Part shown: positions 8,442 to 41,048 of the stretch, one piece after another | How the letters are laid out: each line of letters opens with the position of its first letter | Numbering within the stretch: position 1 is the first letter of the stretch | Assembly (NCBI GenBank): GCA_913055215.1 | Contig: CAJXJP010000005.1 | Location: 1 to 45,260 of the forward strand | Source: an uncultured Candidatus Altimarinota bacterium | GTDB taxonomy: Bacteria > Patescibacteriota > Gracilibacteria > BD1-5 > UBA6164 | DNA length: 45,260 bases | Reading direction: 5' to 3' | The notes under the pieces: generated by a model | Seen by the model: the letters and a program-made list of their open reading frames with translations, nothing else | The model's database searches: none | Told to the model about the DNA's origin: nothing | Program-made: the position numbers and the translations under genes

Positions 8442-9986
8442 ATGAAATTCATAATCAAACCATTTGCTGAAATAATGGTTAAATCAAAACCCGTAAGAAG
8501 AAGATATTTACAAACACTTCAATATAACCTTAATTTAAAAGTTAAAAAAATATCTGAAAATTTAAAAGTTTCTGTTTTTTATGATAAATTAGAACTCAAT
8601 ATAAAAAATCCTGAAATAAAAGAAGAATATGATATTCCTGCTATTTCTAAAGCTTTAGCTCGTACTCCATGAGTTGATTTCTTCTTAGAGGTAGAATGAC
8701 ATGAAATTCCATCAATTATAGAAAAAGAAAATCCAGAAAATCAAAAAGAGACATTTAATAAAATTCTTGAAAAAACTATTCATGTATATCTAGATCAAAT
8801 TAGAGATAAAAGTTTTGTGGTAAGAGTAAAACGTGCATGAGTTCATGATTTTAAATCTATCGACTTAGAACGCTATGTTGGAGCATGATTATTAAAAAAA
8901 CTTGATTCTGAATGAATTCATTGAAAAGTAAGTTTAAGAAATCCTGAAGTGACTGTTTCTGTAGAAATTAAGGATGAAAATTTATATATTGTAAAAAATA
9001 AAGGAACTGGTATCGGTGGTTACCCAACAGGGGTACAAGATAAAATCATCAGTCTTATATCTGGAGGATTTGATTCTGGAGTTTCAACATATTCAATGAT
9101 GAAAAGATGATGTAAAGTAGATTTTCTATTTTTTAATCTCTGAGGTTCTGCTCATGAATTATGAGTAAAACAAGTTGCATATTATCTGAATAATCAATTT
9201 TCAAGTGGATATGCTGCAAACATAGTAACCGTTCCTTTTGAAGATGTTATTCGTGACCTAGTTATGAATGTTGATCATAAATATAGAGCAATTATTCTCA
9301 AAAGATGTATGCTAAAAATTGCTGACAAACTTGCTCAAGAAAATGAATATTATGCAATTGTAAAATGAGATAGTTTAGGACAAGTATCAAGCCAAACATT
9401 AAAGAATATGTTTGCAATAGATAGAGCATCTGAAACGCTTGTGTTACGTCCATTAATCTGATTCAATAAACAAGAAATTGTAAATATTACAAAAGAAATC
9501 TGAACTTATGATTTTGCTTGTAATATGCCAGAATACTGTGGAGTAATATCTGATAAACCTGCAACCTGAGCATCATTAAAAAAAGTGATTGAAGCAGAAA
9601 AAGTATTTAATGAATCATTACTTTTCGAAGCATTTGATAATAAAAAAGTAGAAAAAGTAACAGATATTATAAAAAATGCTCAAAATCATTCAGATGAAAT
9701 TGAAATTAAAAATTTCGCAATAGATAATGATGTAATTATCGATATTAGAGATCCAGATACTCAATCAAAAAAACAACTTCTTGTTGAAAATAGAGAAATT
9801 ATATCAATTCCCTTTTATGATATAAATAATGAATTTTCAAAACTCGATCAAACAAAAAATTACTTACTTTATTGTGATAAATGAGTAATGTCAAAATTAC
9901 ACTGATTATATTTATTAGAAAAATGATTTAATAATGTTGCTCTCTTTCAACCAATTGAAGCGGATAAAACATGTTGAACTTTATAA
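8442..9986 (+). CDS. thiI: tRNA 4-thiouridine synthase ThiI with rhodanese domain
   Basis: Activates U8 of tRNA by adenylation and transfers sulfur from a cysteine desulfurase. 514 residues with TGA as glycine: ferredoxin-like and THUMP domains (1-165), PP-loop ATPase with S-G-G-F-D-S near residue 206, the conserved M-P-E-Y-C-G-V-I-S (resolving cysteine) near residue 363, and a C-terminal rhodanese domain with the persulfide cysteine in Y-C-D-K-G-V-M-S-K-L. Both redox cysteines of the long E. coli-type enzyme are therefore present. It uses many TGA codons, far more than the ribosomal genes. Monocistronic. Confidence 0.95.
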
Positions 9987-9989
9987 AAG

Positions 9990-10018
9990 AAAAAAGACTC
10001 TATTTGAGTCTTTTTTTT
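9990..10018 (+). terminator. Intrinsic terminator after thiI
   Basis: AAAAGACTC/GAGTCTTTT stem with loop TATT, ending in eight T. Confidence 0.9.
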
Positions 10019-10144
10019 ATATTAATAATTTTTTAAGGTAGTATAAATATAATTCTATTTGAGATGTAAATCTCTTACACATGTGTTAAATTAAATCAAA
10101 ATGGATTCATCTAAAATTGGGTGACCCAATAACAGGAGTAGCAT

Positions 10145-11302
10145 ATGATGCTCAAAACAAAGTTACTTGCTAGTAGTCTAGCACTTGCTCTTACTGGAGC
10201 AACAGGAATAGTAAATGCTGAAACCGTTGTAAAAGAGGGTGCCGACATTAACAATCCTGAAAGTTATGTTCTTGGTATACCAAAAGCACGAAATGCAGTA
10301 GTACCAAGTTATCATGATAGTGATGATATCGAAGCACAAATTTTTGCGGTTGATATCGCTTCGCAAAATCTTTTTAACGAAATCGATGTTTTAACACAAA
10401 TGAAAGGTGGACATGGATATCCACCTTATGTGCTCAAAGCAACAACAGACCGTATTTCAAATAGCCTAAGTAGTTGGACAACTTACCTTATGGGCGACAT
10501 GGAAAAAGGTATATTTGGTCGTTATAATGGTTTAGATATTGAACTTGCTGCTCATACGAATGAACTTGGCGCCAGTCAGAAAAAACTTCAATCTGAAGGA
10601 TTGACTCAACTTGGTGCTCGAATTGATGATGTTCAAAATCAATTGAATAGCATTATTTCGGACCAGACTCAAGTTCAGCATGCCTTTATTAATTTCAATC
10701 AACTCCCGAAAGAGTTTGAATTTAATGGTGTGCAAGGTCTACAAAACGGCACGGTAGAACATCCATTATTACAATACATGGCTTGTTATCCAACTGAGGT
10801 ACCAGACTATCTCGCTGCACATACAACCATGAATCAAGTAATGTGTGTATTTAATATCACTATGGCCGCATCACATCAAGCCTATGTAGTATATCGTGGT
10901 TACTATCCAAAAAACCAGATTTCTGCGGGTACAAAAGTGACTGTTATCGATAATGGTGCTATTTTTGCAAAAACCAACAAATGGTTACGCATGAATGGTA
11001 TGAATAAACCAGAACGTTTACAAATGTATAAACTCCTGGGGAATCCAACTACCTACAAAGCAAAACCCCTTCCAGTTCGCGGCCTCAGTGCTGTGACAAC
11101 ATCTGAGAGTGTAGTCGTTCCTTATGCAGCATCTAGCAATAATGCTGTTATCCTACCAAAACAGGAATTTGCTGAGTTCAAACATGGACAAGGTATTAAT
11201 TCTTATACACAAGGCAGTTCTAATTCTGGAAATGCCGGTCGTGACAATGTTTCTATAAAAGTTGGTTCAGGAACTGGATCAGTTGACTTAACCGTTGAAT
11301 AA
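10145..11302 (+). CDS. Secreted protein of unknown function, foreign-looking
   Basis: 385 residues, not recognised. A clear Sec signal peptide (1-25, cleavage after V-N-A) precedes a mature part with a helical region at about 60-180 and two cysteines in M-A-C-Y-P and M-C-V-F-N. The low-complexity Gly/Ser tail carries S-N-S-G-N-A-G-R-D-N-V-S-I, repeated in the next gene. It departs from its neighbours: none of its roughly 31 glycines is TGA, arginine is CGN throughout, GC content looks higher, and an AGGAG (10134-10138) sits six bases before the ATG. ATG at 10148 is an alternative start. This suggests recent transfer from a standard-code bacterium. Forms a two-gene unit with the next ORF, 12 bases away. 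Confidence 0.8.
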   Translation: MMLKTKLLASSLALALTGATGIVNAETVVKEGADINNPESYVLGIPKARNAVVPSYHDSDDIEAQIFAVDIASQNLFNEIDVLTQMKGGHGYPPYVLKATTDRISNSLSSWTTYLMGDMEKGIFGRYNGLDIELAAHTNELGASQKKLQSEGLTQLGARIDDVQNQLNSIISDQTQVQHAFINFNQLPKEFEFNGVQGLQNGTVEHPLLQYMACYPTEVPDYLAAHTTMNQVMCVFNITMAASHQAYVVYRGYYPKNQISAGTKVTVIDNGAIFAKTNKWLRMNGMNKPERLQMYKLLGNPTTYKAKPLPVRGLSAVTTSESVVVPYAASSNNAVILPKQEFAEFKHGQGINSYTQGSSNSGNAGRDNVSIKVGSGTGSVDLTVE

Positions 11303-11314
11303 AAAGAGGTTTCC

Positions 11315-11593
11315 ATGAAACATTTATTGTTTTGTGCCAACCTTTGCTTATTCAGCACGGTTGGTTATGCCGGTTCTAACTCTGATACAAGAGAAGAATC
11401 AAACAGTGGGAATGCTGCCAGAGATAATGTATCCATCATGATTGAAGATACTGCTCCAAACAGCAATATTAAAATAAAAATAAAGCGCCGTGGTAACGAA
11501 GAGAATCAAGTTGATTTGCAACTTTGTGACGAAACTAACTTTACTCAAAGTGCTGTTGAATCAAACGATCCTCTATGTTCATCAGAAGAATAA
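11315..11593 (+). CDS. Small secreted protein sharing a motif with its upstream neighbour
   Basis: 92 residues, not recognised. Signal peptide (1-19, cleavage after G-Y-A), then residues 29-41 S-N-S-G-N-A-A-R-D-N-V-S-I, matching residues 359-371 of the upstream protein at 12 of 13 positions. The mature part continues with basic I-K-I-K-I-K-R-R and an acidic, serine-rich C-terminus with two cysteines. An AGAGG lies seven bases before the ATG. No TGA codons. The motif is conserved in protein but diverged in DNA, so the copies are not a very recent duplication. Likely co-transcribed and co-functional with 10145-11302. Confidence 0.75.
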   Translation: MKHLLFCANLCLFSTVGYAGSNSDTREESNSGNAARDNVSIMIEDTAPNSNIKIKIKRRGNEENQVDLQLCDETNFTQSAVESNDPLCSSEE

Positions 11594-11606
11594 CGCTCAT
11601 GAACAA

Positions 11607-11646
11607 TAAAAAAAGGGAGAAAGCATTAATGCTTCCTTCCCTTTTC
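11607..11646 (+). terminator. Bidirectional terminator between secreted-protein pair and 891-aa gene
   Basis: Stem AAAAGGGA...AAGCA, loop TTAA, TGCTT...TCCCTTTT, with small internal mismatches. A-tract on the left and T-rich on the right allow use by both converging units. Confidence 0.75.
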
Positions 11647-11656
11647 TTGTGTAAAA

Positions 11657-14332
11657 TTATTTTACTTTATTGTATTCTTCTTTTACATTTGCAATAACTT
11701 TGTTCAAATCTTTTTTATCTTTATTTACTAGAGTTGTTGTTTCAATTGGTAATTTAACAATTTCAGTATCTGATCATTTTGGAGCTAACATTTGTATATA
11801 ATGTTTTCCTTCATCATCACTCACAACTTGTAACTGTGAACCGTCTTCTAAAATTTCAAGTGTTTCAGAAGCACTAGTTGTATCTAAAATTAAATCAATT
11901 GTTTCATTTTGAAAAATATCAACATATTTATTCATAAGTGTATCAACTCCTTTGTCTAAAGTAGCAAAATCGTTTCATTCAAGTACTGATCTATCAAGAG
12001 GAATTCTTACATCACTATCTGCAACCCTATCACCGAATAAAGTTACTAATTGAAGTGAGAATTCTCATTTATCATTTTTTGTTAGTTCAACATCTAAACC
12101 ATGAATTTGTTTATAGTTAGCTACTTTTGATTCAGTGTTTAGTATTCTATCAATTGCTTTTGTTTGAAATTTATTGTTATATTCAGCTTCGATTAATTGA
12201 AGACGAGTATCTACGAATTTTTTAGCAGAAAGTTCATCACGGACATATTCTAAATTATTTGGATCCATTGAAATTTGTAAATCATAGTCAGAAACTCCAT
12301 CTCACCATGCTGTATCAATTTCAATAGAATTCGTTTCTTTATTATATTCTACTAATATGTCATGTCCTGCTTCTGATACAAATGTTGCAAGATCTGGATT
12401 TCCTTCAAATAATTCAGCAATCCATTCTTTAAAATTAACCATCGCTTCAGATAATTTTTCTGTATCAATTAATGGTTCTGTATTTTGAGATTCTGTATAT
12501 TTTTCTTCGTATTTTTGTTTAATTTCAGCTACACGAGACGATACATATTCTTTTGCTGAAGCCTCATCATTAATAAGGTCAGATTCTTTGATATCAACAG
12601 AAAGTTCTAAGTCATAATCCATAACTCCATCAAGCCATGCTGTATCAATACTGATTGTATTTGTTAACTTATTGTATTCAATAATAATTTCATCTCATGC
12701 TTCAGATGTGAATTGAGCTAAGTCAGGATGTCATTCAAATAGTTCATTAATCCATTCTTTTACTGTATTTCATACTTCAGCTATTTTTTCTCAATCAATA
12801 AGTGATTCTGAACCTTCTTCTTGATTATCTACTTTTTTATCAATTTCACCATCCATTCTTTTTTCAAATTCTGAAATTTCATTTTCAAAAGCAACAAGTT
12901 CATCTGGTGTTGTTTTTCTTGAAACAATAATTGTAGTCTCAAATAATTTTGAAATAACTGGATCATTTTGAAAATCTTTATTTCCTCTATATTCTTTAAT
13001 TAATTCGTTTACTTTTGTTTTTCTTTCTAGTTCTTGTTGAATATCGTTTTTCTTTTCTTCTTTTTCATTAATTTCTTGTTGTTCCAATTGTTTTTGTAAT
13101 TCTCTTTGTTCTTGTTGATCAGCAATTAGCTCTTTATGATTATCAACTGCATCACTGATTGATTGTAAATCTTCTACTGATAGATCATTTAATAGGGCTT
13201 TTAATGAAGCTAATGTTTCAACAGAATCTTTTCCAAGTGCGATATTTTCTTCTAAATCAATCATAGATTCTTGAGTATTTTCAAGGTCTCAACTCAGCTC
13301 GATAATTTCATCTTCTTCTAGAGAAACAACTGATAGGATTGCATCCAGATTTTTCATAGTATATTGAATATTTTCAACATATTTTAGTAAATCTGCTTCA
13401 GCTTCTGGATATAGTGTAGTTAATTCATTTTTAGCTTCTGATTCTTGTTTTTCATTTTCAGCTTTTTCTCTTACTACTCTTAACGCTTCAACTCTTGCTT
13501 TTTCTTCTTGAATCAGTCTATCTGCATATTCACGATTTGATTCTGAAATATTTTTATTTTCTTTATTAAGTTCAGTTATTAATTTTTCTATTTGTTTTAA
13601 ATTTGAAGAATCAATGATATCTGTTTTTACATAATTAGATTTATATTCCGGTGACTCAGCAGTTAATAATTGAGCTTCGTCATATCTTTTCATTAATGCT
13701 TCAATTTTCATATCATCAGATATTTGATCAAGACCATCAATAGAGATTTCATTATTATTTCATAGTTGGTCATTAAGAATATCATTATTTTGTAATGTAT
13801 TCCATGATTCTTGCGTAAATTTACCTGAAGATAAATCAATTGTTCCATGATCCCAAGTAATATTTCCAACTAATTGTTTATAAACAAGTATGGTATTATG
13901 AGCTTCATTTAAGACAAGAGAGAATACATCTTTATCTCAAAGAGTCTCTGCAATTGTATTATAAGCTGGCATATTGATATCAATATTCGTTGAACCAGCC
14001 ATAGTAACTAAGGCTTTATAATCTGATTCATTTCATATTGTATATCAGTTTTTTAGCATATCTGAAACTGATGCTTTGATTGATTCTTTTAATTCACTTA
14101 ATCAACCTTGTGCTTCTTCAGAAGGGGCATCAAATTTAGCTTTTAATGATTCAATATTTTTTAAATCTTGCCCATTTAATTTTCCATCTTTAAGAATTTC
14201 TTTTAAAAGATTTACAGGTTGAATAGTTTCTGTTGTATCTGTTTTAACATCTGAATTTTCTGCAACTCATGGGTTTTCCATTAATTGCATAGGTAAAATG
14301 TTTAATAAAAGTTTTTTGTATGTAGTAAACAT
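11657..14332 (-). CDS. Large helical protein with tandem 110-residue repeats
   Basis: 891 residues with TGA as glycine; function unknown. There is no clear signal peptide; the N-terminus is M-F-T-T-Y-K-K-L-L-L-N. A long charged coiled coil (E-Q-R-E-L-Q-K-Q-L-E-Q-Q and on) spans about residues 397-450. Two tandem repeats of 110 residues follow (DNA roughly 12805-12476 and 12475-12146). Each has V/F-K-E-W-I-x-E-L-F-E-G-x-P-D-L-A, then S-E-A-G-x-x-I, E-Y-N-K and I-D-T-A-W, then x-D-Y-D-L. The N-terminal third lacks recognisable domains. TGA is frequent and falls at the conserved repeat glycines. It is one of four large lineage-specific proteins in the window and a candidate structural or surface protein. 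Confidence 0.8.
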
Positions 14333-14461
14333 AAAAATTATATTAAAAAATATTATGAATAGTTAATTCATAAAATATATACTGTTATAATACCATAGAT
14401 TAAATTCTGCAGTCAAAATTATAACTTGACGATTTATATAAATATTTATTAAAATACAAAA

Positions 14462-14495
14462 AAAATACGTTTAGAATATTTCTAAACGTATTTTT
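14462..14495 (-). terminator. Terminator overlapping the smpB stop
   Basis: AAATACGTTTAGAA/TTCTAAACGTATTT stem, loop about four bases; on the minus strand it is followed by a T-run. The smpB TAG codon lies inside the stem. Confidence 0.85.
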
Positions 14496-14943
14496 TCATT
14501 GCTAACTTAGCTGCTTTATCCATTGATCTTTCTTTTAAAACTTGTTTCTTTTGATGAGCTTTTTTCCCTCTTGCAAGAGCAACTCTTAACTTAATCAAGC
14601 TTCATTTAAAATAGAGTTCCGTTGGAATAATTGTATATCATCATTCTTTTATTTTTGTAGAGAGATATGTGATTGTTTTTCTATGAAGAAAAATTTTTCT
14701 TGGGGCATCTGTTTCCAATCATGATCTATTAGATAATGCTTTCCATGCAGTAACTGTCATTCATTTAATATACAGCTCGTTGTTGATTACAACGATATAT
14801 GCTGCTTTTAAATTTACATGTTTTTGACGAATACTTTTCGTTTCGTGTCATTTTAACTCGATTCAAGATTCCCATGAATCTAGTAATTCATAATCGAAAA
14901 ATGCTTTCTTATTTTTCGTAATTTGTGTATCTTTTTTTTTCAT
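14482..14943 (-). CDS. smpB: SsrA-binding protein SmpB
   Basis: Binds tmRNA and places it in stalled ribosomes for trans-translation. 153 residues with TGA as glycine. Motifs: K-K-A-F-F-D-Y-E near the N-terminus, G-I-E-L-K-G-H-E-T-K-S-I-R (family G-x-x-L-x-G-x-E-V-K-S), A-Y-I-V-V-I-N-N-E-L-Y-I, P-R-K-I-F-L-H-R, and the basic C-terminal tail with A-R-G-K-K-A-H-Q-K-K. The conserved glycine in L-K-G-H is a TGA. No tmRNA gene was recognised in the window. Upstream of it on the same strand is the M23 peptidase gene, 18 bases away, so the two may be co-transcribed. Confidence 0.95.
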
Positions 14944-14961
14944 TTCTATTCTTAATCAATT

Positions 14962-16122
14962 TTATTGTTTTTCCATGAAAAGATTTTTTTGATTTTTGAA
15001 GATATATGAAGCTGGTTGTCATTTATAATACCAAGGCCAATTCATATAATCATCATAGTCATACTTTCATGCTTTTTCTTCATTATATGGATTTTTGTGA
15101 ATTGTGAAATGAAGATGAAAATCTTTATAATTTCTATCTGGAACACCTGTGCTTCAAATTGTTCCAACTGGTTCTCATTTACGAATAATAGTTCCTTCTT
15201 TTATATGATCGTAAATATCTGTTAAGTGGCTATAAAAAACAACATCTCACTTCATTGTTTTTAACCAAACTTGATTTCCACGCAATATATCAAGATTTTT
15301 TACTTTATCCATTTCAGTTAGATTTTTTCATTTTTTTAAAGTATTTAAATCTTCAAATACAAATCCATCAACTACTCTTACAATTTGTGCATCATCAAGT
15401 GCAATTATTTCTTCTCATTTTTTAGAACCTATATCCCAACCGTGATGAATTCAGTCTGTGTAAGAACTTCTATAAGGTCTTCATGAATTAGGTATTTTTG
15501 AATGTCTTGTTGGTACTCAATACCCTTGAACTGGAAGGAAATATCTTTGATTTCTTAAATCTATGATATTTGAAAAAATTGCTCTAGTATAAAGTAATTC
15601 AGAAATATTTCTTTGTAATAAATTTTTTGTTGAATTTGAAATATTTGTATTAATTTTACTCTTGTGTTTTGATATTTTTTGATTTATTTTTTCCTGTATT
15701 TCTTTGAGTTTTTCAGTAGGTAAATCTAAAATTTTACTATATAATTTATTTTCACTTAATATATTTAATTTTCCTGAATAAAGTATTTCAGCTCATTTTT
15801 TTAAATATACTTTTCTATCATTACAAGAATTTCCATTAAATGTCATTGAAAAGAAATAATATTTATTTCTTTTTTCTAAAAATTTAAATGAAGTATCACA
15901 AGTAGATACCATTGAAAAATCTGAAATATCTCTTCATGATTGAAATATAAATTTTGCAGTATTTAATTTTCCATGTTCGAGAAATATATTTGAAGTATTT
16001 TTATAATACAATGTTGTTGGAGTGTTTGAAAATCCTATAGAACTCCCAAAAACTAATGAATATGAAAAAATGCTTGCAGCGAGAATTACAGATATCCATA
16101 GTATAAGTGATTTTTTTTGCAT
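14962..16122 (-). CDS. Secreted M23 (LytM-type) peptidoglycan peptidase
   Basis: 386 residues with TGA as glycine. N-terminal signal or anchor (about 1-25). The helical middle is K-I-Q/E rich and likely coiled coil. The C-terminal M23 domain holds the zinc site: H-H-G-W-D-I-G (H-x(3)-D) near residue 234 and H-L-H-F (H-x-H) near residue 346, plus V-V-F-Y-S-H-L. Cuts peptide crosslinks in peptidoglycan, either its own or a partner cell's. The ATG at 16120-16122 is chosen because it begins the signal; an in-frame ATG at 16155 would add 11 residues. Immediately upstream of smpB on the same strand. Confidence 0.88.
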
Positions 16123-16222
16123 ATGATGGTTTTCAACTATATATAAAGTGGACAAACTATAGTCAAAAAATGGTTTTTTTCAAGTGTAATACGTCTTTGC
16201 TGTTAAAAACTTTATACAAAAA

Positions 16223-16248
16223 GAAAAACCGACTTACGTCGGTTTTTT
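16223..16248 (-). terminator. Terminator after two small ORFs
   Basis: AAAACCGAC/GTCGGTTTT with loop TTAC, A-rich on the low-coordinate side (T-run on the minus strand). GC-rich stem. Confidence 0.85.
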
Positions 16249-16261
16249 CAAACTGGATAGT

Positions 16262-16426
16262 TTATGATGTTTGGATTTCAACACGTTCGCCTGGAAGCAG
16301 ATCTGTTTCATCTAAGCCTGGTTTACTCTTTACAGCTTTTGCTGCATTCATTTGCCATGCTTCTTGAGCAATTGCTTCTTGTTCAGCACGAGTATCAGCA
16401 TTTAAGAATTCTTGTTCACCTAACAT
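16262..16426 (-). CDS. Small acidic protein, foreign-looking cassette
   Basis: 54 residues, too short for most gene finders and not recognised. M-L-G-E-Q-E-F-L-N-A-D-T-R-A-E-Q-E-A-I-A at the start, a mixed helix, and a tail P-G-E-R-V-E-I-Q-T-S. A GGAG lies seven bases before the ATG, whose A overlaps the TAA of the upstream small gene (TAATG), so the two are probably translationally coupled. No TGA codon; three glycines are GGN. Ends 13 bases before a strong GC-stem terminator. No signal peptide or membrane segment, so it is probably cytoplasmic. Confidence 0.65.
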   Translation of the reverse strand: MLGEQEFLNADTRAEQEAIAQEAWQMNAAKAVKSKPGLDETDLLPGERVEIQTS

Positions 16427-16554
16427 TATACACTCTCCTTGTTATTTTTATTTTCTTCTGATGGCACCTTTCCGTTGGAGCCATTCCATCTTGATTGACT
16501 TTTGAAGCCAACTTCATCTTCTGGACATCCATCATTTGGTTCTAAATATAACAT
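16426..16554 (-). CDS. Very small hydrophilic protein, foreign-looking cassette
   Basis: 42 residues, not recognised: M-L-Y-L-E-P-N-D-G-C-P-E-D-E-V-G, then a Ser/Asn/Lys-rich tail. Four glycines, all GGN. Preceded by GGGG seven bases before the ATG within a purine-rich stretch. Its TAA shares one base with the next ATG, an overlap typical of genuine co-translated pairs. A single cysteine near residue 10 and the lack of hydrophobic segments argue against a membrane role. Could be a leader ORF for its partner. Confidence 0.55.
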   Translation of the reverse strand: MLYLEPNDGCPEDEVGFKSQSRWNGSNGKVPSEENKNNKESV

Positions 16555-16770
16555 ATGTTTCCCCTTTTTTTATGATTTTTTAAGCCGAGTGGCTAGCCAT
16601 GAGACATAAATAACTCTTTTATAGTTACCAACTCCTGATTTTTATAAAAACTTTTTTTTTAAAGATCTATAATATTTATACGAGGTAGCGCATAAATCAA
16701 AAATCATTCTATTTATCCCATATTTCAATAAAAAAGACTAAGCTTTAGCTTTTTTACTGAAGGATAGGAT
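16555..16770. other. Intergenic region upstream of small ORF pair
   Basis: No convincing gene on either strand. Holds the presumed minus-strand leader of the two small ORFs, including a GGCTAGCC self-complementary stretch near 16590, TATAAA/TATAGA-like boxes near 16670-16680, and a weak hairpin at 16730-16757 with CTAA/TTAG arms in A/T tracts that may terminate the 23-codon ORF or be fortuitous. Confidence 0.4.
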
Positions 16771-16808
16771 AAAAAAAAACCTCTAGGTGATTTCCTAAAA
16801 GTTTTTTT
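16771..16808 (-). terminator. Terminator after possible 23-codon ORF
   Basis: On the minus strand an 11-bp stem with several G-U pairs (AAACTTTTAGG with CCTAGAGGTTT), loop of six, followed by a run of T. Lies about 30 bases after the tiny ORF at 16839-16910. Confidence 0.6.
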
Positions 16809-16838
16809 GAATTCTTAATGTTCTATCAAAAAAATCTC

Positions 16839-16910
16839 TTAGGCAATTCCTAAAAGTAAGACAATCATCGCTAAAATGTTTCCAGCAAAATTTCTCATTT
16901 TTTGATTCAT
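16839..16910 (-). CDS. Possible 23-residue membrane peptide
   Basis: A short start-to-TAA frame: M-N-Q-K-M-R-N-F-A-G, then hydrophobic N-I-L-A-M-I-V-L-L-L-G-I-A. Basic N-terminus followed by a single membrane-length helix is the usual design of small membrane or type I toxin-like peptides. Support comes from context: a TTGACA box upstream (16954-16959) with a weak TAAATT 16 bases on, and a terminator directly downstream, in a 440-base gap with no other gene. No Shine-Dalgarno is visible. Treat as a candidate only. Confidence 0.35.
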   Translation of the reverse strand: MNQKMRNFAGNILAMIVLLLGIA

Positions 16911-16931
16911 TAAAAATAAAACTATAAATTA

Positions 16932-16959
16932 AATTTAGTACTTTTTTCGGTATTGTCAA
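16932..16959 (-). promoter_or_regulatory. Possible promoter for the 23-codon ORF
   Basis: TTGACA on the minus strand (16954-16959), 16-base spacer, then TAAATT. The -35 box is perfect, the -10 weak; placed about 25 bases before the ATG of the tiny ORF and downstream of the dnaE terminator. Confidence 0.4.
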
Positions 16960-16970
16960 TTTTTTTGTTG

Positions 16971-17010
16971 AAAAAAAATAATATTTCCCTATAGAAAAGG
17001 AAATATTATT
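16971..17010 (-). terminator. Intrinsic terminator after dnaE
   Basis: Perfect 12-bp stem AATAATATTTCC/GGAAATATTATT with a ten-base loop and flanking A/T tracts, eight bases beyond the dnaE stop. Confidence 0.88.
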
Positions 17011-17017
17011 TTTATTT

Positions 17018-20000
17018 TTATTCACCATACCACATTGATTGTTCCCAATCAGTAAGACTTTCAACGTCATCAATAGAAATTTTAGTAAAAATTTCTTGTC
17101 ATTTTAACAATATATAAATTTCTGTTTTTCCAGATTCTAATTCAGTTAAGAAACTTTTTAATTCGTGCAAATCTTCTTTTTTTGCATGAGACGGAATTTC
17201 AACAACATATTTATATTCTTTAAAAACTTCTTTATTTGTTTCTAAGTCTGTAATTTGTTCACTTGGTTCTGATTGTTGTTCATGAATTTTATTTTCTAAT
17301 TTTGTTTCAAATTCTTTATTTTCTTCTGATTCTGAATTATCTTCTTCTTCATCTTCAATTTCAACTTTTTCAAAATACATCAAACGTTTTTTCCCATCAT
17401 ATAAACCTAGATCTCTCGCTTGTTCACGAACTTGAGAAATACTTGCAATTTTGATATCACGAGCTTGAACTGATTTACGACCGTATTCAAAATTTACTTG
17501 CAGAGTACCATTTACAATGACAATTTTATCTACATCGAGTTTATCTTGAAATTTTTCTACATCTTTTGGAAAAATAACTACCTCAAATTCATAATCAAAT
17601 CCTTCACACTTTAAGAAAACCATTGGTTTTCATGTTTTTGTAACAATTTTTCTTAAATCCACAACTACTCAAACTGCTTGGATCATTTCATCTTTAGGTT
17701 TTTCCGTTTTTTGTTTTCATTTTTCTTGAACAATCTGTTCTTTTTTTTCTTGATCTGATAAATATTTATCAGGATTATTTTTTTTATCAAGTTCTAATAA
17801 GTCTGACATAGACATTTTTAGCTTTTTAGTAGCATTTGAACGTCTAGCACAGTATCTTCATAAACCATCAAGAGCATGTCATGACACAGAAAATCAAATC
17901 ATTTCTTTTTCTCATTTTAATTTATCTTCAAATGAAAATTTTTCTGTTTTAATTAGTTCTAGTTTTTCCTCAAACTCATCACAATTATCAAATAATCAAA
18001 TTTGTGATGTTGCTTTTTTCTTTTCATCTTTTCTACAAAATTTAATCATATCAGGGATCGAGTGATACATATGAGCTCTATCTCATAAATCATCCATCGC
18101 TCATGACATAATTAATGCTTCAAGTGATTTTTTATTAATAACTTCTGTCCCACAAGATTCAATAAATTCTTCTAACGATTCAAAATCTCTTCATAATTCA
18201 TCTCTTGTAGCAATAACTCTATTAATTGGTCCATCTCAAATCCCTTTTATCGCTTTTAAACCAAAACGAACATTTTTATCATCAATATAGGTAAAATGTT
18301 TTAATGATTGTTGTACACTTGGCGGAAGAACATCAATTCATTTTGATTGACATTCTCAAACTTCTAAAACAATTCTTTCCATATTTTCCTCATCAGAAAC
18401 CATAATTGAAGTTAGGAATTCTGTTGGATAATAGGCTTTTAAATATGCTGTTTGGTAAGCAATAAATGCGTAACAAGCCGCATGTGATTTATTAAATGAG
18501 TAATTCGCAGCTGGTTGAATCATTTCCTCATAAATATAACGAGAAACTTCTGGTTTATATCATTTATAAGAAGCTCCTTTTTCAATAAATTCTTTTTTTA
18601 ATGCTTCAATTACTTCTAATTTCTTTTTCCCGACTCAACGTCTTAATAAATCGGCTTCACCAAGAGAAAATCATGCCATATACTGTACAATAAACATTAA
18701 TTGTTCTTGATAGACAGCAATACCATAAGACACATCTAGGATTCATTTTAAATCTGTTTCTAATTTTATTCTTTGTTCCTCAACTACTTCTTCTGAATAA
18801 CCTGCTTTTGTTAATATTTCATGTAAAGCATCCGTCATATATTTAATCTCCTCTCTCCCATATTTTCTATCAATAAATGTTGGGATATAAGCAAGTGGTC
18901 CAGGACGATACAGTGATACCATCGCGATAAGATCTTCAAAAACATTTGGTTTCAGATCACGTAAATACTTTCTCATCCCATCAGATTCAAACTGGAAGAC
19001 TCCGGTTGTATCTCCTGCAGCAAATACTTCAAATACTTTTGGATCATCCATATTTATTTTCAAAATATCAAACGTATCTCATTTATTATTTTTAATAATT
19101 TTTTGAGCACGTTTAATAATTGTCAGATTTCTTAATCAAAGGAAATCCATTTTTAATAATCATAGATCTTCCAATGGATATGCACTATATTGAGTTACAA
19201 TTGCTTCAGCATCTTTTGGCGGATGTTGGAGTGCTGTAAAGTTTGTCATAGGTTCTGGTGCAATGATTACAGCACAGGCATGAACTCATAATTGACGAAC
19301 ATTCCCCTCAATTTTTAAGGCATTATCAATGATTTCTTTATATTTTTTATTTGTATTGTAGGCTTCATTAAATTCAAAAGATTCTTCTAAAGCTTTTGCT
19401 AATTTTGTCCCTGGTTTTTCAGGAATAAGTTTTGCTAGTTCATTCATTTCTTGAAAAGGAATTCACATAACTCTCCCAACATCTTTTACCGCAGCACGAG
19501 CAGCAAATGTACCAAAAGTACAGATTTGCGCTACTTTATCAGAACCATATTTATTTCTACAATATTCTACTACTCTATCTCTTTCATTATCGGCAAAATC
19601 CGTATCGATATCTGGCATCGAAACTCTGGCTGGATTTAAGAAACGTTCAAATAGTAGATCATATTCCATAGGATCAATATCTGTAATTCCAGAAAGAAAT
19701 GCCATAATTGAACCTGCTGCTGATCATCTTCCTGGTCAAACAGGAATATCATTATCACGAGCCCAGTTGATATAATCTGCTACAATCAAGAAATATGCAT
19801 CAAATCACATTTCATGAATTACTACTAATTCATATTCTAATCTTTCTATATAATCTTGCCTCTTTTGTTCAAGAGATGATAAAAATAATTTCTTTTTATC
19901 AGAATAATACGTTAAAGATAAAGCTTTTAATTCCTCAGGTGAAGTTTCTGTGAGTTTTTTATCTAAGCTCGGTTTATCCATTTTTTGTACCAATTCGAAA

Positions 20001-38712: not shown

Positions 38713-38735
38713 AGAAAAGTATTTTATACTTTTCT
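38713..38735 (-). terminator. Terminator overlapping the stop of the 774-aa gene
   Basis: AGAAAAGTA/TACTTTTCT stem with loop TTTTA; T-run on the minus strand side. Stop codon lies in the loop and arm. Confidence 0.7.
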
Positions 38736-41048
38736 TTCTAGTGTTACTGACTTATCTCAAGCCGTTAGTGTTTGAATATTTTCTTCTGAATTTTTAGCAG
38801 TAAGTAAAAACTCTACTACTTTAATTTTAGACACAAGAATTTCTCTTCATAATATTTTAAATTGTATTCATGATTCTAATACTTGAATTTGGTCAAAATC
38901 AAATCATACAGAATTACTTACCTTAAAGCTAGAATCTCATAATTGTAATTCTTGAGAATCCTTATGAAACTGAATAATATCTCCTTGAGCATTGTATTCA
39001 ATTCCAGAAGTTATATCTCATTCTGGTAATTCTAATAGATCTTGTTTTAATAACATATCAGAAGAAACTCATACATTTATTTTTTCTAGTTCATTGACTA
39101 TATCGACTTGTTTTTGTGTATTTAATTCAATTGCAGATTGTTTATTATCAATTTCTTTTCATAAGAAATCAAAAAAATCTTTTGAGACCGAATTTACTCC
39201 AGAATATAAATCATTTAGTGTCGTAACATTATCTCAGAAAGAATGCTCTTTAGAATAATTAATTAATTGATTTTGTAGTACGCCTAGGTGCACTAAATTA
39301 TCTTTTGATACTTTTGAGATTTCATCTCATAAAGTACTGTGTAATAAGTCTTCTAAATGTTCTCATCAAACCAGTTGTGAGATTTCAATATCAGAAACGT
39401 CTCAAATATTTAACCATTCATCCCATTCTCAAATATTTTTCATATTTTCAGGATTTTTAATAAATGAGATTTGTTCAGATTCTTGATATAATTTAACAGA
39501 TCATTCTCATACTGCAATAAGTTCTTGTTGTTTTTTATCTACAGATTTTTGAATTTTTTCTTTTTCTCCATTAATTTTTTCTTGTTCCTTTTCTTTTTCT
39601 TTTTCTATTAATAGATTTTCTTTTTGAATTTCATATTTTTTAATACCACTTTTCAATATTTTAGATAATTGATTTTCTTTTAATGCTCCGTTTTCAAAAT
39701 TGTCAGCATTATCTAATCATTCAAATTTTAAAGTTAAACCATCGATTTCTTTTCATTCTTTTGAAAATGAATCTAACCAAAGTTGTTTCATTTCATCTTT
39801 ATTATTCAATCCTGTTATTTCTAGTATTTTACTCAGACTGCTTTTATTTGATTGAAAATTTTGTTCTCAGAAATCGATATTTTTGAAAATTCATTCTCCA
39901 CTTATATTCCCTCAATCTTTATTTTTAGATTGTCACATTCATAATAGTGTTGAATGACAAGAATGTTGTAAAGTCAATGAATGTAAGCTATCAAGTGGAT
40001 TATTAGAATCTAATCAAAGGAAAACTGCTAACATTTTTCATACAATTGGAATTTTTAGTGCAAATGATAATAATTTTTGCACAACAGGTCATGACATATC
40101 ATTATCCATCAAACCTAATAAAGTTTCTTGAGCTTCATCTCACTTATTTAACTGTAAAGCGAGTTCTCATATTTTTTCTTTAGAATTTACCATAAAATCC
40201 TTTAATTTTTCTGTATTTATAGGATTTTCTTTTCATTCTGTTTTTGAGAAATCAATTGTAGAAACATCAAATGCGTCTAAACCTTTAGATAATAATTCTG
40301 GATTATTAAAAATCTCGATATGAGAAAAAATATTTTTTTGTTCCTGCTTTGTTAATTCTCAACCATTAACTTCTATATGAGTATTAATTTCTGATAATTT
40401 TAATTCATATGGGTATAAAAAATTATCGAGCGTTCATTTCAAAACATCCCCTGATTCTTTAAAATTTGAAAATCATTCTTGAACTTGTGAAATGGCATTA
40501 GAATATTCTCATTTATTTAATAAAGATAATGATCATTTGATATTTTCCTGAAAGTCTCATCCAGAATTCATTGCTAACTCGAAAAAACTCGAAGATGAAA
40601 AATTATCAACAATAGATAATTTTAGCAGATTAAATTGTGTTGGAGATAAAAATTCATATTTTCAAAACTTTTGATCAGCGTAACTTTCAAATAATTTTTG
40701 CATTTCTGTTAATCTCACAGAATCAAAACCATCAATGATATTATCAATACTGATAGCTTTTTCTATATTATTAGCAATTTGTCATTCTAATACTTCTTCG
40801 TATACAAATTTTCAAAGTACTTCAAAATTTTCAGGCTCTTTTATATTTCAAAGCTCCGCTTTTAAGTTACTTAATTCATTTTTTGTAACATTTAGAACTT
40901 CTTCAGAACTTTCCAGTCCATACTTTTGTTCAATGAATTTATGAAATAAATCAGCTTGTTCTGGATTATTTAAAACAGCAGAAGCGATATCTTCTACTTT
41001 ATTAATTGATTCTATTTGATGTTCTCATCAAGTTTCTACTCCTGACAT
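38724..41048 (-). CDS. Large TGA-rich protein of unknown function
   Basis: 774 residues as one frame with TGA as glycine; under the standard code it dissolves into fragments, which would hide it from ordinary gene finding. M-S-G-V-E-T-G-G-E-H at the start; mainly helical and acidic. A hydrophobic segment V-V-Q-K-L-L-S-F-A-L-K-I-P-I-V-G-K lies near 320-345, followed by a small Cys/His patch (H-S-C-H-S). A long Glu/Lys coiled coil (I-E-K-E-K-E-K-E-Q-E-K-I) spans about 470-505. The C-terminal 150 residues look beta-rich. No known domain recognised. Divergent from the 1069-residue gene, sharing a 179-base promoter region. Confidence 0.75.

What the first reader, a model, noticed from the sequence alone, without database searches (positions are those of the whole stretch)
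10131..11646. Imported two-gene secreted system
The 385-aa and 92-aa secreted proteins are TGA-free despite about 31 glycines in the first alone. The first uses CGN for arginine where native genes use mostly AGA. Both have Shine-Dalgarno sequences close to the start, which most native genes here lack, and Sec signals. They sit between thiI and a recoded native gene. This is the pattern of DNA from a standard-code, probably Gram-negative, bacterium, perhaps the host or prey of this organism. I recognise neither protein.
Basis: partly seen in the sequence, partly recalled or inferred. Interest (0 to 1): 0.72.

Follow-up and report, generated by a model that had tools for sequence, protein, structure and literature searches.

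The report
Unrecoded foreign gene pair in Gracilibacterium
A bacterium that reads the stop codon TGA as glycine carries two adjacent genes for secreted proteins that were copied in, unaltered, from a bacterium with the ordinary genetic code, and they are two of roughly twenty such foreign genes in its genome, so ordinary-code genes do enter and persist in these small host-dependent bacteria.

Summary
S385 (10145-11302) and S92 (11315-11593) are intact, have no TGA codon (0 of 31 glycines in S385), carry Shine-Dalgarno (SD) sites, and lie between thiI and a recoded gene. GC is 0.39 against 0.285 for native genes. With TGA left out, S385 codon use still fits 40%-GC gammaproteobacterial gene sets better than the native set, and it does not fit the native low-TGA (highly expressed) set. 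The closest relative found, G114 (one contig), has the same gene order with a 40-bp gap there. No homologue was found in 353 genomes of the class, 380 of the phylum, plasmids, phages or (by limited scans) other collections.

The pair is not alone. In 78% of the genome, about 15-20 TGA-free, foreign-codon ORFs sit mostly singly between recoded genes. They carry SD sites far more often than native genes (10/19 against 16/840, p=7e-12). G114 shows the same class (17/30 against 16/809). One import still ends in a TGA stop that the recipient would read through.

Best explanation: standard-code DNA from a Gram-negative, possibly prey, bacterium was taken up and integrated. S385 and S92 share a 24-residue motif and are probably a co-exported pair. 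Function, donor and route are not shown.

The parts
8442..9986 (+). thiI, native recoded left neighbour (TGA 17 of 30 Gly)
   Evidence: Pfam ThiI 1.8e-65, code 25
9990..10016 (.). thiI intrinsic terminator, native; left limit of the insert lies at or after it
   Evidence: stem-loop z -5.97; G114 has a comparable terminator in its 40-bp gap
10020..10133 (+). AT-rich leader of the insert, probably with the donor promoter; exact left junction not resolved
   Evidence: not present in G114; no sigma-70 site above chance
10134..10138 (+). Shine-Dalgarno AGGAG, 6 nt before S385
   Evidence: sequence; SD at 16 of 840 native-codon ORFs
10145..11302 (+). S385: imported 385-aa protein, putative Sec signal (about residues 1-25), no known family
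11192..11263 (+). C-terminal 24-aa motif of S385 shared with S92 (GINSYTQGSSNSGNAGRDNVSIKV)
   Evidence: 16/24 identical, E 2e-6
11306..11309 (+). Shine-Dalgarno GAGG, 5 nt before S92
   Evidence: sequence
11315..11593 (+). S92: imported 92-aa protein, putative Sec signal, no known family
11372..11443 (+). 24-aa motif of S92 shared with S385 (GSNSDTREESNSGNAARDNVSIMI)
11603..11652 (.). bidirectional terminator-like hairpin at the right limit; native or brought with the insert, not resolved
   Evidence: palindrome, z -3.27
11657..14332 (-). 891-aa native recoded right neighbour (TGA 15 of 36 Gly), no Pfam family; diverged homologue in G114 in the same place

Best explanation
S385 and S92 are a short transcription unit (leader, SD, S385, SD, S92) from a standard-code, SD-using, roughly 39%-GC Gram-negative bacterium, most likely a gammaproteobacterium. 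It was inserted between the convergent genes thiI and the 891-aa gene after this lineage split from its closest known relative. Shown: foreign sequence character, empty site in the relative, native flanks, absence of relatives in the class. Inferred: the DNA came from a prey or host cell, entered by the ComEC/DprA uptake route that this genome encodes, and joined by illegitimate recombination. Because both genes lack TGA and end in TAA, the recipient can translate them unchanged. Inferred: both proteins are exported by Sec, and their shared 24-residue motif marks them as partners (common docking or assembly site) in the envelope or outside the cell. The insert is one of roughly 15-20 unrecoded imports in the genome, which implies recurrent capture rather than a single accident. 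My confidence is 0.85 for the import itself, about 0.5 for the prey/uptake route and about 0.3 for a paired envelope function in this cell.
For: GC 0.39 against 0.285 sd 0.032; TGA 0/31; codon models; SD statistics. Empty site: G114 is collinear LeuRS-x-OMT-thiI-[40 bp]-891 homologue-SmpB-M23-PolIII; insertion unique in 353 class genomes. Single copy, no transposase or integrase ORF in the 1.67-kb interval, nearest tRNA over 9 kb away. Other TGA-free imports, most of them sandwiched: subtilase at a contig start, broken M12-type peptidase, four MCP-type receptors, lipoproteins and orphans. Import L049:18426 ends in TGA directly before a terminator hairpin and would be read through. ComEC and DprA are native: 19 and 12 TGA. 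G114 shows the same TGA-free/SD class, p=9e-19.
Against: No donor homologue was found in any collection, so donor group and prey status are inferred from composition only. No reads, so an assembly artefact is not formally excluded. Junctions are not resolved and there is no target duplication or recombination scar. S92 alone has weak codon evidence. Some imports are frame-broken (L047, L062), so retention may be passive and S385/S92 may do nothing in this cell.
Confidence: 0.85

Rival explanations
1. Native, highly expressed genes that avoid TGA by selection, with no import.
For: EF-Tu and a BipA-type GTPase in the same window are TGA-poor.
Against: Native low-TGA genes use AGA and a distinct codon set; S385 scores 57 nats worse under that model while EF-Tu scores +67. 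SD present though 98% of native-codon ORFs lack it. Absent from all relatives.
Confidence: 0.03
2. Assembly or binning chimera: a fragment of a co-occurring gammaproteobacterium spliced into the contig.
For: Draft genome in 83 contigs; contig C30 has a 10-kb foreign run at its end with another codon style (L090:9145-19153), which could be such a chimera.
Against: Two independent false joins at a site where both flanks keep the relative's gene order would be needed here, and again at a dozen other places. The single-contig genome G114 shows the same gene class.
Confidence: 0.05
3. The pair is cargo of a phage or other mobile element with standard-code compatibility, delivered by infection rather than by uptake of prey DNA.
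For: Standard-code-compatible phages of Gracilibacteria/Absconditabacteria are reported (PMC10746230); imports are compact units of one or a few genes.
Against: No PHROG match, no phage record, no viral contig; no integrase or phage gene in the insert.
Confidence: 0.12
4. The insert is real imported DNA but inert: a passively integrated prey fragment on its way to decay, without function in the recipient. (This rivals the functional part of the best explanation, not the import.)
For: Other imports are frame-broken (L062 peptidase, L047 PAS/MCP) or lack a readable stop (L049:18426); receptors for a chemotaxis system are unlikely to work here.
Against: S385 and S92 are both intact, and intact imports outnumber broken ones.
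Confidence: 0.4

Closest known systems
Horizontally acquired genes in Absconditabacteria (Vampirococcus lugosii, 126 HGT genes, PMC8080830)
   Same: Recoded, host-dependent CPR bacterium with ComEC gaining genes from other bacteria; gammaproteobacterial prey in that case
   Different: There detected by gene trees; here detected by unrecoded codon use, SD sites and an empty site, with no homologue available for a tree
Gracilibacterium BD02T64 region near the PTD-repeat gene, possibly acquired from a Colwellia relative (PMC6851277)
   Same: Foreign genes in a marine Gracilibacterium, possible partner of Colwellia; G114 has that genome's size (1.343 Mb, one contig) and may be it
   Different: That region is reported to follow the alternative code; S385/S92 do not
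Standard-code-compatible phages of Gracilibacteria/Absconditabacteria (PMC10746230)
   Same: TGA-free genes readable in both codes
   Different: Those are phages; this insert has no phage gene
Known protein families (Pfam, NCBIfam, PHROGs, PADLOC, PDB)
   Same: Nothing at significance
   Different: No family for S385 or S92

Membership tests
Recent horizontal import from a standard-code bacterium | Sequence composition and codon use foreign to the genome, beyond expression bias | tested here: met
Recent horizontal import from a standard-code bacterium | Absent from close relatives with an empty site at the orthologous place | tested here: met
   G114 gap of 40 bp; 353 class genomes
Recent horizontal import from a standard-code bacterium | Homologue in the donor lineage | tested here: inconclusive
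   none found; searches outside the phylum were limited to exact 8-mer scans, plasmids, phages and E. coli DNA, so absence is weak
Mobile genetic element (transposon, integron cassette, prophage) | Recombinase gene, terminal repeats, attC or target-site duplication | tested here: not met
   no such ORF in the interval, no convincing flanking repeat pair, single copy, no Rfam hit over threshold; attC was not formally modelled
Sec-exported protein pair | N-terminal signal peptide | tested here: inconclusive
   by eye only; no predictor available
Toxin-immunity or adhesin pair | Recognised domain or fold | tested here: inconclusive
   no family; single-sequence AlphaFold2 model at pLDDT 32 is unusable

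The most novel reading that the evidence does not exclude
These recoded, host-dependent bacteria continually capture compact, ready-to-express genes from the cells they feed on. A turnover class of unrecoded genes (no TGA, SD present, donor codons) then slowly acquires TGA codons, so that the genetic-code difference makes each genome a readable record of recent prey and of what was kept.
Probability: 0.3. Interest if true: 0.7.

Novelty: new member of a known kind. Interest (0 to 1): 0.5.

Why it matters
Most genomes hide recent gene transfer because donor and recipient share a code and translation signals. Here the recipient uses TGA as glycine and almost never uses Shine-Dalgarno sites, so imported genes stand out by two sequence marks that need no database. 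That makes it directly testable which genes host-dependent CPR bacteria take from neighbours, from whom, and how an import becomes recoded. It also shows that a changed code is not a strict barrier to gene entry. The two proteins themselves are orphans of unknown role.

Tried and rejected
Family and structure searches of S385/S92 (Pfam, NCBIfam, PHROGs, PADLOC, PDB) gave nothing. AlphaFold2 on the single sequence was useless, so no fold search was run. Hits of S385 in four phylum genomes at E 0.001-0.009 are what chance gives over 380 genomes. Weak plasmid and phage hits at E 2-9 are chance. A search centred on gammaproteobacterial genomes was not possible: the centre must be a genome handle. 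The motif SNSGNAxRDNVSI found nothing in viral contigs and nothing else in the held genome. Curli-like, integron-cassette and conjugation-component readings were considered from memory and dropped for lack of any match. Rfam hits are all below threshold. The hairpin before the S385 SD is not significant (z -0.65).

Full report
What is there. The window is contig C5 of a 1.39-Mb draft genome in 83 contigs that reads TGA as glycine (17 in-frame TGA in thiI, 41 in the gene at 38724-41048). Between thiI (8442-9986, +) and an 891-aa recoded gene (11657-14332, -) lie two ORFs, S385 (10145-11302) and S92 (11315-11593), both on + and both ending in TAA. Both begin with what looks like a Sec signal peptide (judged by eye).

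Is it more than chance. S385 has 31 glycines and no TGA; the sampled genome uses TGA for 39% of glycines. All 9 arginines are CGN; native genes use CGN for 19%. GC is 0.39 against a mean of 0.285, sd 0.032, for ORFs of 150 aa or more. TGA avoidance alone could reflect high expression, since EF-Tu in the same window has 0 of 37. I therefore built codon models without the TGA codon. S385 fits Pseudoalteromonas and Aliivibrio codon use better than native use by 22 and 20 nats; the native low-TGA model is 57 nats worse. EF-Tu behaves the opposite way. This makes expression bias very unlikely as the cause. S92 is too short to judge alone (+4/+6 nats) but shares operon layout, SD site and a sequence motif with S385.

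SD sites. S385 and S92 have AGGAG and GAGG at 6 and 5 nt. In this genome 16 of 840 native-codon ORFs have GGAG, GAGG or AGGA before their first ATG, against 10 of 19 foreign-codon ORFs (p=7e-12; 15 of 19 against 26 of 840 with a looser pattern, p=3e-18). The foreign set was chosen by codon use, not by SD. The 16S of relative G114 ends in GGACTATCTCCTTA; compared with the usual GGATCACCTCCTTA (from general knowledge) it keeps CTCCTT, so AAGGAG-type sites could still pair.

Empty site. Relative G114 (one contig of 1,343,103 bp, thiI 72% identical) has LeuRS, a small ORF, the O-methyltransferase, thiI, then after 40 bp the homologue of the 891-aa gene (25-27% identical), SmpB, M23 peptidase and Pol III alpha in the same order. 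Thus about 1.6 kb was inserted at the convergent gene ends. No homologue occurs in 353 genomes of the class. The exact junctions are not resolved: the right-hand hairpin (11603-11652) may be native or imported. No repeat pair, recombinase or adjacent tRNA marks a known element.

The wider pattern. I read 1.09 Mb (78%) of the genome in stretches. Many TGA-free, foreign-codon ORFs appeared. About 15 islands lie between recoded genes, among them four MCP-type receptors (one next to a PAS part in another frame), a broken M12-type peptidase and several orphans; a subtilase lies at a contig start. Some sites are collinear with a short gap in G114, such as L082:4969-5418 with a gap of about 100 bp. 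L049:18426 has its only TGA at codon 200, directly followed by a terminator hairpin: it is best read as a donor stop codon that the recipient would translate as glycine, which is direct evidence of a code mismatch. G114 has its own such genes, including FGAM synthase- and SAICAR/AIR carboxylase-like enzymes without TGA; the imports of G000 have no full-length counterpart in G114. In G114, 17 of 30 TGA-free, gamma-leaning ORFs have SD sites against 16 of 809 others.

How it most likely works. Shown: foreign origin in character, insertion in this lineage, intact readable genes. Inferred: DNA of a standard-code neighbour entered by the competence route (ComEC and DprA are native here; a role of ComEC in uptake of host DNA is proposed for Vampirococcus, PMC8080830) and was joined by illegitimate recombination at a place where no gene is harmed. 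Inferred: the two proteins are exported and act together; the shared motif (16 of 24 identical, E 2e-6) is the only positive clue. Whether they serve this cell is open; passive carriage is at least as likely as use.

Compared with the known. Horizontal acquisition by such bacteria is known: 126 genes in Vampirococcus (PMC8080830) and a possible Colwellia-related region in a Gracilibacterium (PMC6851277), where the alternative code is reported to be in use in the region. Standard-code-compatible phages are known (PMC10746230). What is added here is a class of unrecoded chromosomal genes recognisable by two marks. S385 and S92 belong to no family tested.

Limits. Homologue searches outside the phylum were shallow (exact 8-mer scans, plasmids, phages), so 'orphan' means 'not found here'. 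No reads were available. About 20% of the genome was not read. The codon score was seeded with S385 itself and two other imports; searches used outside models. Native starts were taken as the first ATG of each ORF, so the native SD rate is approximate. G114's identity with the published BD02T64 genome is inferred from size only.

Noticed in passing
L090 (G000:C30) 9145-19153: A 10-kb run of TGA-poor foreign genes (histidine kinase fragment, porin O/P, Tim44-like, Hsp70-like, Dus, HAD) at a contig end, with mostly AGA/AGG arginine codons unlike S385. It starts inside a gene, so it may be a chimeric contig or a larger import.
   Followed up: partly
L049:18426-19130 (G000:C4): Imported ORF whose apparent donor stop TGA (19023-19025) is followed at once by a terminator hairpin; in code 25 it reads through into the next gene's end.
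   Followed up: yes
L047:10693-12496 and L062:17958-18844: Imported PAS/MCP receptor and M12-type peptidase, each split over two frames, so probably decayed or containing sequencing errors.
   Followed up: partly
G114:307107-310895, 312059-313219, 115833-117149: TGA-free genes, two of them purine-synthesis-like (FGAM synthase 0 of 112 Gly, SAICAR/AIR carboxylase-like), in a related single-contig genome, probably imports.
   Followed up: partly
islands: 6 of 17 imported islands lie within 2.5 kb of type IV pilin-like genes (1.9 expected, P 0.006). Post hoc test with hand-picked islands and distance.
   Followed up: partly
L093:17614-18327, L085:19075-19554, L076:8876-9427, L073:9412-9852: ORFs with SD sites and a few TGA codons, intermediate in codon use; they might be older imports that are being recoded.
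   Followed up: no
G114 16S rRNA 3' end (L171): The anti-SD region reads TCTCCTTA where CCTCCTTA is usual, in a lineage where about 2% of genes have an SD site.
   Followed up: partly
L081:1060-9626 (G000:C21): Six tandem pilin-like genes of about 400-530 aa with near-identical N-termini.
   Followed up: no
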